Part shown: in pieces, positions 55,867 to 63,815 of the stretch
How positions within the stretch are numbered: the first letter of the stretch is position 1
Layout of the letters: each line of letters opens with the position of its first letter
NCBI GenBank assembly: GCA_943735955.1
Contig: OX030969.1
Coordinates: 2,602,587-2,666,586, forward strand
From: Piscicola geometra
Taxonomy: Eukaryota; Annelida; Clitellata; Hirudinida; Piscicolidae
Direction: 5' to 3'
DNA length: 64,000 nucleotides
Position numbers and translations under genes: made by a program
The notes under the pieces: model-generated
Database searches by the model: none
What the model saw: only the letters and a program-made list of their open reading frames with translations
Told to the model about the DNA's origin: nothing

Positions 55867-58800
55867 GTGAGTTGATTGGTTTTTTATTTTAATTCACATT
55901 TCTCCTTCGCTGGACTGACTGTTTTCAATGAATATAAACCACAAAACAAATACTTCTGATAATTCAAATAATCCATTTTTAATAATTATAATTTAATCAA
56001 AATTTAATTAGAAGTCATCTTGATAGCATAAAGACCGATAAATAATCACCCCACCACCATACAATACAATACAATACATCACCATCACAACCATGATGAC
56101 AGGGCCTTTGACACCAGGCGCCCGGATGAACCCACTCAGTCCCCAGGATCCATCCACCCAACTGAGCACCTTCAGGTCCTACGTGAGCATCATCGCTGAC
56201 GCTGCGCATAACAGTGAGTTGGGAAAGAAGCAAATAGTTACTATTTATGTTAGAGATATGTTATGTTATATATATATTTATAGTTCTATAATAATTATTT
56301 TAATTTGCATACTTTGAAGCGTACCAAATAATTACTCCATGCTACTCATTGCTCTTATTATTATACTATTTTTATTATTATTATTTTTTTTTTGCATTTC
56401 AACATGATGATAACATGTATTGTCCAATCTCGTGTGCCCAGACGCTGTATAAAAATGAAAATTATTTTTTTACATATTATAATCAGATCACTATTAAATT
56501 ATGTAAGATGGAGATTACGATGGCATGAGCTGGTAATTAATTTGGATTGGAATAATTGTTTTGGAAAGGACGAATTAGTCACTTATATCTAGTGGATGCA
56601 TATTGATGATGATGTTTAATGGGTTATGATAATGATGGTGGATATCTATACCTAATAACTAGGGGATGCATCTAAGTTCTTGATCAAGTTGCTATATATA
56701 AAGTACCTTTTTTTAGTTTAATTATAATATTAAAATATGGATGATATGAGTTTTGATAATAGTAATTATATTAATAATGAGTGTTACCAAAGTGGCATCA
56801 ACCCTAACAAGCTTCAAACTATTAACAATCCAAATAATCAGCAATCATGTATTCTTTTAGATCATTAAATGAAAAATTGCCAATAATTATAATTGAATGA
56901 TTTAGATCAATTAGATTCTTAATTGCCACTCATCCACCTCGAGCAGCTGATAAGAAGTTGAAGGCTGCCCAGGAGTTGTGTGAGAACTTTGAGGTGGGTG
57001 ATGATGATGATGATGTTTAATGGGTGATGATATTGTTGTTAGTGGGTGGGTGGTGATGATGATGATGGTGTTGGGAGGGTGATGATGATGATTATGGTGT
57101 TGGGAGGGTGGTGATGATGTTTAATGTGTGACGATATTGATGGTAGTGGGTGGGTGGTGATGATGATGATGGTGTTGGGAGGGTGGTGATGATGTTTACT
57201 GTGTGATGAAATTGATGGTAGTGGGTAGATGGGTGATGATGATGATGGTGTTGGGTGGCTTATGATTAGTGTTTGATGAGAAGTTGGTTGTGAAACCTAG
57301 TTAAATGAATGGTTTCCGAACATTAAAAAGTGCAAATGCTCAAAAAACGACCAAGTTCAATAAGAACTGTTAAATATTCATGAGCGACTGATACATATTC
57401 ACATGCAACTGGTATCATAAGCAGCAGCATCTACATCTCCTATTAACTAGCAACAAACACGAAACAAACATAACAACATTCCTTTTTGACAACCCCCTCG
57501 CACGAATTAACCACCACATCCATGCCATAAAACCAACTCCCACACCCATACCATGAAACCACCGTCCAAAATCCATTAGACCATGCCCACACACTATTAA
57601 AAAACCACCACATCCCACACCATAAAACCACCACACACACACGAAACAGTTGATCGTCTCGAATCCTGGTTATGCGCAGTTCATTGGCGAGTCGTTGAAG
57701 GTCTTCATGAGGACTCTGCAGGAGACAGAGCCAGTCTTCATCACCGAGAACTCTACGCAGGTGGAAGAGGGGGGAGGAGGGGGGAGTGAGTGGTTGAGTG
57801 GATGGGGATGGTTTGGTGGATGGAGGGAGGAGTTGGAAGGAGAGGGGAGGGCATGAGGTGGATGATGGAGGGAGGGGTTTGAGGAGTGGATAAGTTGAGG
57901 GAGTTATTTGAGGAATGAATGAGGTGGATGATGTGGTAGATGGAGGGATTGGATGGGGGGATGGAGTATTTGAAAGGGGGTTGTATAGCGTTATAAAGAA
58001 GAGATGATGTTAATAAGAACAACAATAATAATAATAACAATAACAACAATATATAGTAATGATAACAACATTAATAAAAAAAAAATATAATAATCATAAA
58101 TTAATAATCATCAAAATAATAATAATATTAATAAAAAGAAAAATAAATAAAATAAAAACAACAATAATAATAAGGAGAATAAAAATAATAATGGTGAGAA
58201 TAATATTGAGAAAGTGAGGAAATGGAGAGTTCATCTTTCCACCCTCATGCGCCTCCCTGGAACACCCACTCATGACGGCTTAGTCGCCACTGCATTCACC
58301 CTTGCCATTATTCACCACAGCACACCACAAAACCTCCATCACCCCCGCTACCACTGCACTACAGAATCTTTCAGCCATCACTGAACCACCATCACCACTG
58401 TATCGCAATCACTACCACACAACCACGCCTCTTCCAACCACACACCACCACCACACAACCACAACAACTCCCCACCACCCCACCCCCCACCATCATATCA
58501 CACAACCACAACTCCCCACCACAGCAACTGCGCAAAGTGCTCCTCGAACTCATCCATCGCATGCCCTCCAATGAACACCTTCGTCCCCACGTTCCATCCA
58601 TCCTCTCCCTCCTCTTCAAGATGGTCGAGGTGGCTGGATGGGGGAGTGGGAGGGAGAGGGGTGTTTGAGGGGGGGGAGGGGGAAAATAGGAGTGATCACA
58701 CATGCATTCACACGTAAAAACACCCACACACAAAGAGTATACTCACACATACATACCTAGACACACACACACACAAACACACACACACACACACACAGCA

Positions 58801-61800
58801 ACGCACATGCAAACACACACACACACACACAAACATAGGTGGATTGCGAGGAGAACGTGATAGTGTGTTTGAGGATCATCATCCAGTTGATCAAGCAGTA
58901 CCACCCTGCCAACAACCCAGATGTGCGTGCTGTGGTTTTATGTGGTGTGGTGTGGTTGTGTGGCAGCTGTGTGGCTGTGGGGTGGCTATGTGTGGTTTTG
59001 AAGTAGTGTGGTTATGTGGTGGTTTTGTTGTTGTGTTTTGTGTGGTGGTGTGTTTCTTTTATGGTGTGGTGGTGTGGCAGTTTGGTTTTATGATAGGGGT
59101 GCGTCGTAGAAGTGCGGTTGCATGTAGTGTATTGGCGTGATTCTGTAGTGGTGTGGGTGCTAAGGGAGAGCTTGTGGCGTGTTGAGGGACTTACAACGTT
59201 CCATGGTGTGTTTGTGGTCAGAGCGTGGTTTGATGGTGATGTTGTGGAGATGGTGTTTTGGTAGTCATTGGGAGGGATTGGTGTGGGATAATGGCTGTTT
59301 ATTGGGGTAAATGAACAAATTAAAATCATTATTTCATTGTTTTTTATTATTGTGCGGACAATTATCTCTACCAATGAAAACACACAACCATACTATTTTA
59401 AAGCGCTATATAAATACACAAAATATGATTGTCAATATTATTATTATTATCATTATTATCATTATTATTATTATTATTATTATTATTATTATCACAGGTC
59501 TTGGGCTTTCTAAAGTACGTTAAAGGAGTATATGAGAGTCTCCCCAAGCACCTGGAAAAGATGTGTGAGAACAGGTACTACTACTACTAATACTACTACT
59601 ACTACTACTACTACTACTTCTACTACTACTACTACTACTACTACTACTACTACTACTAATACTACTACTACTACTAATACTACTACTACAACTACTACTA
59701 TCACTACTACTACTACTACTACCACTACTACAACCACTACTACTTTTACCACCACAACTACTACCACCACTACTACTACTACCACTACTACTACTACTAC
59801 TACTACTACTACTACTACTACTACTACTACTACTACAACTACTACTACCATTACTACTACTAATACTACCACTACTACAACCACTACTACTTTTACCACC
59901 ACAACTACTACCACCACCACTATTACTACTACTACCCCTACAAACACTACCACAACCACTACTACTACTACTACCCCCACAACCACTACTACCACTAGCA
60001 CTACCATTACCACCACTACCACAACCACCACCACCACTACTACAACCACCACGACAGAACGCAACTAAAGGTGGCTGACATAAGCGACGTGGACATAAAG
60101 ACGAAGTTAGACGAAGTCTTCACCACCACCACCATCGTCACCGAGAAGAAGAATAACGAGAACCAGAATGTCTCCGTATGTGGGTGGTGATGGTGGTGGT
60201 GGTGGTAGTGGTGGTGGTAGTGGTGGGATTGTGGTGGTGGTGGTGGTGGTGGTGGTGGTGGTGGTGGAAGGATGGCTTAGGGGTGGGATGGAAGGTTGAG
60301 ATGATTGTGGTCGAATTGAAAAGTTTGTTGGATGGTGATGGTGGGATACTGCTGGTGCTGGTGTTTTTATTTTATTCACCCACTCTACTCCTCAACCCCC
60401 CCCCCCCCCCCCCCCCCCCAGTACAACCTCATGCCCAGGGCTGACCGCTCCTTGAAAGTGATTGCTGAGTTGCCGATTGCTGTTGTACTCATGTACCAGC
60501 TCTATAAGCAACAGGTGTGTGTGTGTGTGTGTGTGTGTGTGTGTGTGTGTGTGTGTGTGTGTGTGTGTGTGTGTGTGTGTGTGTGTGTGTGTGTGTGTGT
60601 GTGTAAAACATTTAGACTATTTTATAATTTAAAAATGATATATATATATATATATATATTTTATCAACTAAATAAAGATATAAAAATTAGTAAAATATCA
60701 TTAACATCGTCATCATAATTACCATCAACATCATCACCACCCCCATCATCATCATCATCATCATCATCATCATCCCCATCATCATCATCTCCATCATCAT
60801 CATCATCATCACTCCCATCATCATCATCATCATCATCACTCCCATCATCATCATCATCATCACCACCAGGTGCACTCTCACGTGGCAGACTTCATTCCTC
60901 TCATCATGAACACCATCAACATGCACCCCACGCCACAACAACGGTCTGTCTTCTTAGCGCACACAAACACACACACACACAAACACACAAACACACACAC
61001 ACATATATACACACCAACACCACACTCCACCATGACAACACCACTACCACAATCACTACCACAACCACCCTACAAAACCCCCCACTCCATAACTACCCCA
61101 CCACCACACCACAACAGCAACTCCCTACATTTCAACAAATTTCACACCAACCACCACCACAACCACACTCCATCACCACTCCACCACATCACCACCATCT
61201 TCCCACCAAACCACCCAGCCACCACATAACCACAACACAACCACTCTAACACACCAAACACACCACCTTCCCACCAAACCACCCAGCCACCACATCACCA
61301 CAACACAACCACTCTAACACACCAAACACACCACCTTCCCACCAAACCACCCAGCCACCACATCACCACAACACAACCACTCCAACACACCAAACCACAC
61401 CATCTTACCACCAAACCACTCTGCCACCACACACTAAACCCCACTAAAATTACACCAAACACTCTTCTCCCACTTCCATCACTCAACAACCACAACACCA
61501 CAACCACAACCACAACACTACAGCAACTCCCTTCACTTCGATCACAACCACTCCTCCAAACCAGACCACACATTAAAACACACACACACATACACAAAAA
61601 CACATATAAACACACACACACACACACACACACACACACACACACACACACACACACACACACACACACACACACACACACACACACCCACACACATACA
61701 CACATACACACACACACACACACACACACACACACACACACACACACACACACACACACACACACACACATACAAACACACACACACACACACACACACA

Positions 61801-63664: not shown

Positions 63665-63815
63665 GTGATGATGATGATGATGATGATGATGATAATGGTA
63701 ATGATGATGATGATGATGATGATGATGGTAATGATGATGATAACTATGATGATGATGATAATGATGATGGTATGAGTATGATGATGATGATGATAATGAT
63801 GGTGCTGAAGAGGGT
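63665..63815 (+). repeat. (GAT)n microsatellite at the exon 14 donor
   Basis: GTGATGATGATG onward for about 130 bp with ATAATGG interruptions. The next exon is outside the window. Confidence 0.95.

What the first reader, a model, noticed from the sequence alone, without database searches (positions are those of the whole stretch)
56994..63815. Microsatellites anchored on splice sites, with complementary repeats at opposite ends of introns
In TRRAP the 5' splice site is often the first unit of a microsatellite: GTGATGATG (62695, 63368, 63665), GTGTGT (60515), GTACTAC (59575); the same occurs in the receptor at 51887. Acceptors end CAT, CA, CCA or C tracts (60869, 61841, 63585, 58524, 60421). 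In introns 62695-63300 and 63368-63585 donor-side GATGAT and acceptor-side ATCATC are complementary and could pair, bringing the splice sites together. Known: complementary AC/GT tracts are reported to fold fish introns this way. A GAT/ATC and GGT/CCA version across a whole gene would be new to me.
Basis: partly seen in the sequence, partly recalled or inferred. Interest (0 to 1): 0.78.

Follow-up and report, generated by a model that had tools for sequence, protein, structure and literature searches.

The report
Leech introns: G/T-rich start, A/C-rich end
In a fish-leech genome, short repeats inside introns are sorted by position, G/T-type after the intron start and A/C-type before its end, where the usual pyrimidine tract is mostly missing; this looks more like a splicing code of base composition than like matched repeats that pair within each intron.

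Summary
The window lies in a 171-Mb animal assembly whose COX1 is 97% identical to a piscicolid fish leech. TRRAP starts at 55860. I placed 60 of its introns against human TRRAP, and 76 in myosin, kinesin and kinase genes. TRRAP donor sides are G/T-rich (C 7%), acceptor sides A/C-rich (G 3%, T 14%). Repeat orientation follows intron half in 113 introns: GAT 21:0, GT 11:0, GGT 12:0 (donor:acceptor); ATC 9:29, AC 4:19, ACC 3:17 (all runs, Fisher p=4e-31), against 24 G-type and 30 C-type runs in window 1-44000.

Pairing within introns is mostly unsupported. Own ends pair no better than ends of different introns, repeats at the two ends do not co-occur (p=0.70), shuffles that keep local composition remove most of the folding excess, and predicted pairing across exons exceeds that within introns. 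The two named introns do fold end to end, and 13 of 85 introns keep z below -2. Repeats that contain the donor GT are rare (5 of 60) and at most weakly above chance.

Best explanation: a two-sided compositional splicing code, read separately at each end, with microsatellites as its material.

The parts
51887..51984 (+). receptor tyrosine kinase-like gene, intron that begins GTGATGATGATGATGG (read by eye)
   Evidence: donor position; acceptor read by eye
55860..63664 (+). TRRAP coding exons 1-14 within the window (7, 111, 47, 111, 105, 84, 77, 118, 93, 74, 87, 82, 67, 79 nt)
   Evidence: spliced protein matches human TRRAP 13-371, E=2.6e-106
55867..56102 (+). TRRAP intron 1, weakly G/T at donor (keto 0.53), A/C at acceptor (keto 0.31)
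56214..56946 (+). TRRAP intron 2, AT-rich, little asymmetry
56994..57649 (+). TRRAP intron 3, donor GGTGATGATG type, acceptor CCACCACACACA
57761..58524 (+). TRRAP intron 4, donor G-rich (GGAGGGGG, GGATG), acceptor CCACCA
58630..58838 (+). TRRAP intron 5, donor GGATGGGGG, acceptor (CA)n
58923..59497 (+). TRRAP intron 6, donor GTGTGG type, acceptor (ATT)n then ATCACAG: no A/C tract
59575..60057 (+). TRRAP intron 7, (ACT)n nearly throughout, not self-complementary
60176..60421 (+). TRRAP intron 8, donor (GGT)n, acceptor C run
60515..60869 (+). TRRAP intron 9, donor (GT)n containing the splice-site GT, acceptor (ATC)n
60944..61841 (+). TRRAP intron 10, A/C-rich at both ends
61929..62612 (+). TRRAP intron 11, short G/T donor end, long CCACCC/CCATCC acceptor side
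62695..63300 (+). TRRAP intron 12, donor GAT/GGT arrays, acceptor ATC; folds end to end
63368..63585 (+). TRRAP intron 13, donor GAT, acceptor ATC; predicted helix includes the donor site itself
63665..64000 (+). TRRAP intron 14 (ends at window position 64081, beyond the window), donor GAT array

Best explanation
Many introns of this fish leech carry a two-sided compositional splicing code. Roughly the first 100 nt after the 5' splice site are G/T-rich and C-poor; the last 200 nt or so before the 3' splice site are A/C-rich and nearly free of G, and stand where a U-rich polypyrimidine tract is expected. Shown: the composition, its change of sign inside the intron, the sorting of repeat orientation, the low T content before the acceptor, the depletion of AG. 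Inferred: that proteins read each side separately (G/U-type and CA/C-type binders are candidates), that G near the acceptor is removed because it makes false AG and GT signals, and that microsatellites grow where their strand fits the local code. Complementarity of the two ends then follows from the code and need not be its purpose.
For: Composition in three gene sets: both signs in 51 of 60 TRRAP, 34 of 48 myosin/kinesin and 18 of 23 kinase introns; the same with least ambiguous boundaries (41 of 48, 20 of 29, 9 of 11). Repeat orientation by intron half 107 G-type and 51 C-type in donor halves, 15 and 161 in acceptor halves, p=3.6e-31, against 24 and 30 in window 1-44000. GAT and ATC, which hold neither AG nor GT, are sorted as well, so avoiding false signals alone does not explain it. 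The two ends vary independently (odds ratio 0.84; keto correlation +0.20 and +0.07), as expected if each is read alone. T fraction at -23..-4 has median 0.125 and 0.15. AG observed/expected is 0.58-0.64 on the donor side and 0.78-0.79 on the acceptor side. G-rich and C-rich intronic enhancers that offset weak pyrimidine tracts are known in human introns (passages of PMC2481429).
Against: No binding protein or RNA-seq was examined. No branch-point motif was found. Not universal: AT-rich introns in several myosin genes look ordinary, and 13 of 60 and 10 of 53 introns have a pyrimidine run of 8 nt or more. C-type repeats also occur in donor halves (51 of 158 runs). G/T tracts hold many possible GT donors, so the code alone does not pick the right one. 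Only myosin, kinesin, kinase and TRRAP genes were sampled. A minority of introns fold better than block shuffles.
Confidence: 0.55

Rival explanations
1. RNA bridging at the level of composition: any G/U tract pairs with the nearest C/A tract, folding introns so that their ends meet; motif matching is not needed.
For: Donor ends pair far better with acceptor ends than donor with donor or acceptor with acceptor ends (TRRAP 60 nt: -32.9 against -17.0 and -1.9). The two named introns fold end to end. During transcription the own donor tract is made first (inference).
Against: Presence of the two tract types is uncorrelated between ends. At equilibrium pairing across exons exceeds pairing within introns. 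In 31 of 45 TRRAP introns at least four of donor bases +1 to +6 are paired in the predicted fold, which would hide the site from U1.
Confidence: 0.2
2. One reading: repeats matched within each intron (GAT with ATC, GGT with CCA) pair to bring its splice sites together.
For: Two introns in the window; GAT/ATC co-occurrence p=0.035 uncorrected.
Against: Own ends equal swapped ends in four of four duplex tests and six of six k-mer tests; GT/AC and GGT/ACC do not co-occur (p=0.67, 0.73).
Confidence: 0.07
3. No selection: microsatellite slippage plus strand-biased mutation in transcribed DNA.
For: Repeat-rich genome; the two ends of an intron share same-strand words above chance, as local slippage would give.
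Against: Transcription-coupled bias should keep one sign along the transcript (stated in PMC10946897, passage); here it changes sign inside introns and is tied to both splice sites.
Confidence: 0.08
4. Only avoidance of false AG and GT signals, with no positive reading of the tracts.
For: AG depleted; ACT 23 runs, AGT none; AG-free strand 43, AG-bearing strand 21, p=0.008.
Against: GAT and ATC hold neither signal and are sorted 21:0 and 9:29; AGGG occurs 9:2 in donor halves; GT is not depleted on the acceptor side relative to composition (1.45 and 1.21).
Confidence: 0.1

Closest known systems
Fish introns bridged by AC and GT repeats, spliced without U2AF2 (Lin et al. 2016, recalled; not held; one summarising sentence seen in PMC9198270)
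   Same: Complementary simple repeats at opposite ends of introns
   Different: Here also GAT/ATC, GGT/ACC, GGGT/ACCC; no coupling of the two ends within an intron; U2AF2 genes present; dependence on U2AF2 unknown
G-rich and C-rich intronic splicing enhancers that offset weak pyrimidine tracts in human introns (PMC2481429, passages)
   Same: G-rich and C-rich elements together with weak pyrimidine tracts
   Different: There both lie upstream of the tract; here the G type lies at the donor side and the C type at the acceptor side, as long A/C or G/T tracts and tandem repeats
Splicing-coupled strand asymmetry and avoidance of AG in the 3' tract of short introns (PMC10946897, abstract and passages)
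   Same: AG and G depletion before the acceptor, asymmetry tied to splicing
   Different: The tract is A/C rather than C/T, reaches about 200 nt, and is mirrored by a G/T tract at the donor side
Divergent U2AF with changed 3' splice sites in larvacean tunicates (PMC13326754, abstract, outline and passages)
   Same: More than one U2AF2 locus together with an unusual acceptor side
   Different: Here introns in the sample are GT/AG by construction; no evidence ties the U2AF2 loci to the A/C tract

Membership tests
AC/GT-bridged fish introns | GT-type repeats at one intron end and AC-type at the other | tested here: met
   GT 11:0 and AC 4:19 donor:acceptor halves; further motif families likewise
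AC/GT-bridged fish introns | the two repeats co-occur in the same intron beyond chance | tested here: not met
   GT with AC p=0.67; any G-type with any C-type odds ratio 0.84, p=0.70, 107 introns; own equals swapped
AC/GT-bridged fish introns | stable bridging structure | tested here: inconclusive
   mean z -0.50 and -0.33 against block shuffles, but 13 of 85 introns below -2
AC/GT-bridged fish introns | splicing without U2AF2 | not testable with these tools
   genome encodes U2AF2-like RRM exons at two loci
Introns with weak pyrimidine tracts helped by G-rich and C-rich enhancers | weak pyrimidine tract | tested here: met
   median T fraction 0.125 and 0.15, median longest T run 2; pyrimidine run of 8 or more in 13 of 60 and 10 of 53
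[quoted passage not shown]
   G is 2-9% in the last 200 nt of TRRAP introns; G-type lies at the donor side
Introns with weak pyrimidine tracts helped by G-rich and C-rich enhancers | motifs enhance splicing when tested | not testable with these tools
   needs minigenes
AG-avoiding 3' tracts | AG under-represented upstream of the acceptor beyond composition | tested here: met
   observed/expected 0.78 and 0.79 in the last 100 nt
AG-avoiding 3' tracts | tract rich in pyrimidines | tested here: inconclusive
   C+T 0.53-0.66 in the last 200 nt, with A 0.31-0.40

The most novel reading that the evidence does not exclude
In this leech lineage the spliceosome defines introns by a two-sided G/U-then-C/A code in place of a U-rich pyrimidine tract, so that most exons lie between a C/A tract and a complementary G/U tract. 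The same composition lets nearest tracts pair without specific matching, within introns during transcription and across exons afterwards, which predicts unusually abundant circular exons as a by-product.
Probability: 0.25. Interest if true: 0.78.

Novelty: new variant of a known kind. Interest (0 to 1): 0.55.

Why it matters
Animal introns are expected to end in a U-rich pyrimidine tract bound by U2AF2. Here is an annelid genome in which, in the genes sampled, that tract is largely replaced by A/C-rich, G-poor sequence and mirrored by G/T-rich sequence after the donor, with microsatellite orientation strongly sorted between the two. It makes testable whether simple repeats serve as splicing signals, and whether complementary repeats at intron ends act by pairing or by composition, because here the two predictions part. 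It also warns that repeat complementarity in other species may be a by-product of composition.

Tried and rejected
Pairing within introns was tested with swapped ends, k-mers, co-occurrence, whole and block shuffles, three-part blocks and a power check. Repeats containing the donor GT were tested twice: at most a weak excess. A home-made gene finder took A/C repeats for coding sequence and was dropped; homology placed the introns instead. A k-mer scan for a branch point or other fixed motif gave nothing convincing, and CTRAY-like motifs are at or below shuffle expectation. Genome-wide pattern counts: MAG|GTGATGATGATGATGATG 375 against 67 for permuted MGA; MAG|GTATCATCATCATCATCA 35 against 5. 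In numbers the GAT excess is about ten times larger, but MAG over MGA is alike (5.6 and 7), so this test does not settle orientation. Acceptor-like patterns 71 (ATC) against 61 (GAT) do not discriminate.

Rows dropped: in TRRAP at least a dozen junctions with uncertain neighbours were left out by hand; of 48 listed pairs one was not found; in 12 of 60 introns more than one GT/AG pair was possible. In one search, 53 pairs were kept and 55 adjacent hit pairs skipped (different genes, gaps or overlaps too large, four without a candidate); at least one kept boundary (C7:2825971) looks wrong by eye. Of the kinase hits (147 matches) only 20 loci with close exon pairs were fetched, so long introns are missing there; 23 of 24 pairs were placed. 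Kinase introns were not part. Tests with a length limit left out shorter introns, as their outputs say. One search used introns of 150-620 nt only, blocks up to 1700 nt.

None of the listings showed a report of this pattern in annelids or leeches; only listings were seen for most papers, and most subscription papers are not held. Passages only were seen of PMC5766209, PMC9198270, PMC7404189, PMC10946897, PMC2481429 and PMC2773006 (stems from simple repeats in large invertebrate introns); abstract, outline and passages of PMC13326754.
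Full report
What the window is. It lies at G000:C15:2602587-2666586 of a 171-Mb, 66-contig animal assembly. Contig C66 carries a COX1 with 12 in-frame TGA codons; read with the invertebrate mitochondrial code (TGA=Trp, AGA=Ser) it aligns well. Its best matches among the 120 listed are Codonobdella sp. (97% identity), Notostomum cyclostomum (91%) and Pterobdella arugamensis (90%), three genera placed in Piscicolidae. 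So this is a piscicolid fish leech; Piscicola geometra would be a guess from memory.

Gene models. Fourteen TRRAP exons in the window splice to a protein that matches human TRRAP residues 13-371 (E=2.6e-106). The gene goes on through 60 kb downstream, where exon peptides match human TRRAP in three more searches. With neighbours fixed by homology 60 introns were placed: 13 and 47 of 48 pairs; 48 of 60 had one possible GT/AG pair. Exon hits of Myosin_head (94 matches) and Kinesin (89 matches), of which part was fetched, gave 53 introns; 20 kinase loci chosen gave 23. The choice among splice pairs scored the last three exon bases, acceptor base -3, the first exon base and fit to the homology, not intron repeats.

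Composition. In TRRAP the donor side +6..+20 has A.16 C.07 G.47 T.29 and the acceptor side -20..-4 A.31 C.51 G.03 T.14. Keto skew goes from +0.54 to +0.09 at 150-200 nt from the donor and from -0.65 to -0.44 at 150-200 nt from the acceptor (35 introns in the far bins). Myosin and kinesin introns start at +0.32 and -0.41. Kinases (50-nt ends): donor A.24 C.09 G.29 T.38, acceptor A.34 C.35 G.06 T.25. Both signs hold in 51 of 60, 34 of 48 and 18 of 23 introns. The T fraction at -23..-4 has median 0.125 and 0.15; the longest T run has median 2; a pyrimidine run of 8 or more occurs in 13 of 60 and 10 of 53. Asymmetry in G against C rises with intron GC content (rho 0.39) and length (rho 0.30); several myosin introns are AT-rich and look ordinary.

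Repeats. Perfect runs of 12 nt or more in 113 introns: G-type units 107 in donor halves and 15 in acceptor halves; C-type 51 and 161 (odds ratio 22.5, p=3.6e-31). By family, donor:acceptor: GAT 21:0, ATC 9:29; GT 11:0, AC 4:19; GGT 12:0, ACC 3:17; GGGT 11:1, ACCC 1:4; against the rule ATGG 4:4 and ATGGTG 3:2. ACT occurs 23 times, AGT never. Window 1-44000 gives 24 G-type and 30 C-type runs. Runs in one intron may share descent, so the p-value overstates independence.

Pairing. Ends of one intron pair as well as ends of different introns: TRRAP 60-nt ends -32.8 against -32.9 (p=0.53), 100-nt -49.7 against -50.9 (p=0.68); myosin/kinesin -18.7 against -18.2 (p=0.32) and -31.5 against -31.5 (p=0.48). 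Reverse-complement k-mer matching is at chance in six of six tests, while same-strand similarity of the two ends is above chance (p 0.0002 or less). G-type at the donor and C-type at the acceptor do not co-occur (27, 25, 31, 24; p=0.70). GAT with ATC reaches p=0.035 among four motif tests and p=0.17 without the introns at 62695, 63368 and 63665. Against 50-nt block shuffles (12 each) the mean z is -0.50 in 45 TRRAP introns and -0.33 in 40 others; 7 and 6 of them stay below -2 (17 and 9 with whole-intron shuffles). That minority is the best remaining support for structure. In 42 TRRAP intron-exon-intron blocks predicted pairs number 1958 across the exon, 1216 and 990 within the first and second intron, 1636 between the outer ends. 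This is equilibrium folding of naked RNA; folding during transcription would favour the own intron.

The named introns. 62695-63300 folds to -209.6 kcal/mol (z -7.66, 20 shuffles), 63368-63585 to -62.2 (z -5.53, 200 shuffles). Against block shuffles z is -3.8 and -2.9, while 60176 and 60515 give +3.4 each. In 63368 the predicted helix takes in the donor itself. These two were picked because they look complementary, so they are not a fair sample.

Explanation. Each end seems constrained on its own: the acceptor side in 59 of 60 TRRAP introns, the donor side in 52 of 60. AG is depleted on both sides, which fits selection against false 3' splice sites (PMC10946897), yet GAT and ATC, free of AG and GT, are sorted too. 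A code read separately at each end, with repeats as its material, fits best. G-rich and C-rich enhancers that offset weak pyrimidine tracts are known in human introns (PMC2481429). U2AF2-like exons are found at two loci, with a third, weaker match on C5. Which proteins read the tracts, and where branch points lie, is open.

Novelty. Compared with the fish introns bridged by AC and GT repeats (recalled; one sentence seen in PMC9198270), the layout is shared but not the coupling within an intron. Nine literature searches listed no report of the pattern in leeches or other annelids.

Noticed in passing
G000:C33:71565-73751 (L029): A 93-kb contig carries a myosin open frame of 1400 aa that matches nearly the whole Myosin_head profile without introns; it may be foreign DNA in the assembly.
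   Followed up: no
L006, about 89.9 and 90.5 kb in window-extended coordinates: The TRRAP exon that encodes DARNAFNTSPISNQDIPEHNLWEAHWIR occurs twice in tandem: exon duplication or assembly artefact.
   Followed up: no
113 TRRAP, myosin and kinesin introns: ACT repeats occur 23 times and their complement AGT never, in line with avoidance of AG and of TAG.
   Followed up: partly
113 introns, -60 to -16: Branch-point-like motifs CTRAY and CTAAC are at or below shuffle expectation (2 of 60 and 1 of 53 for CTRAY); the branch point of this animal may differ or lie elsewhere.
   Followed up: partly
TRRAP, myosin and kinesin donors, position +3: G is commoner than A at +3: 36 G and 8 A of 60, 34 G and 6 A of 53.
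   Followed up: no
L038 and L041 (U2AF2-like loci on C16 and C1): The C16 copy reads KIFIACLP where the C1 copy reads KIFVGGIP and human, as recalled, KLFIGGLP in the second RRM; whether this alters RNA binding is unknown.
   Followed up: no
window 2993-5053, 41424-41949, 16671-16857: Large arrays: a 20-bp unit x74 that runs into (ACT)195; (ACTG)131; (TA)93.
   Followed up: no
L004-L009 joined to the window: The 68.2-kb TRRAP region holds 2500 N, a gap or a withheld stretch.
   Followed up: no
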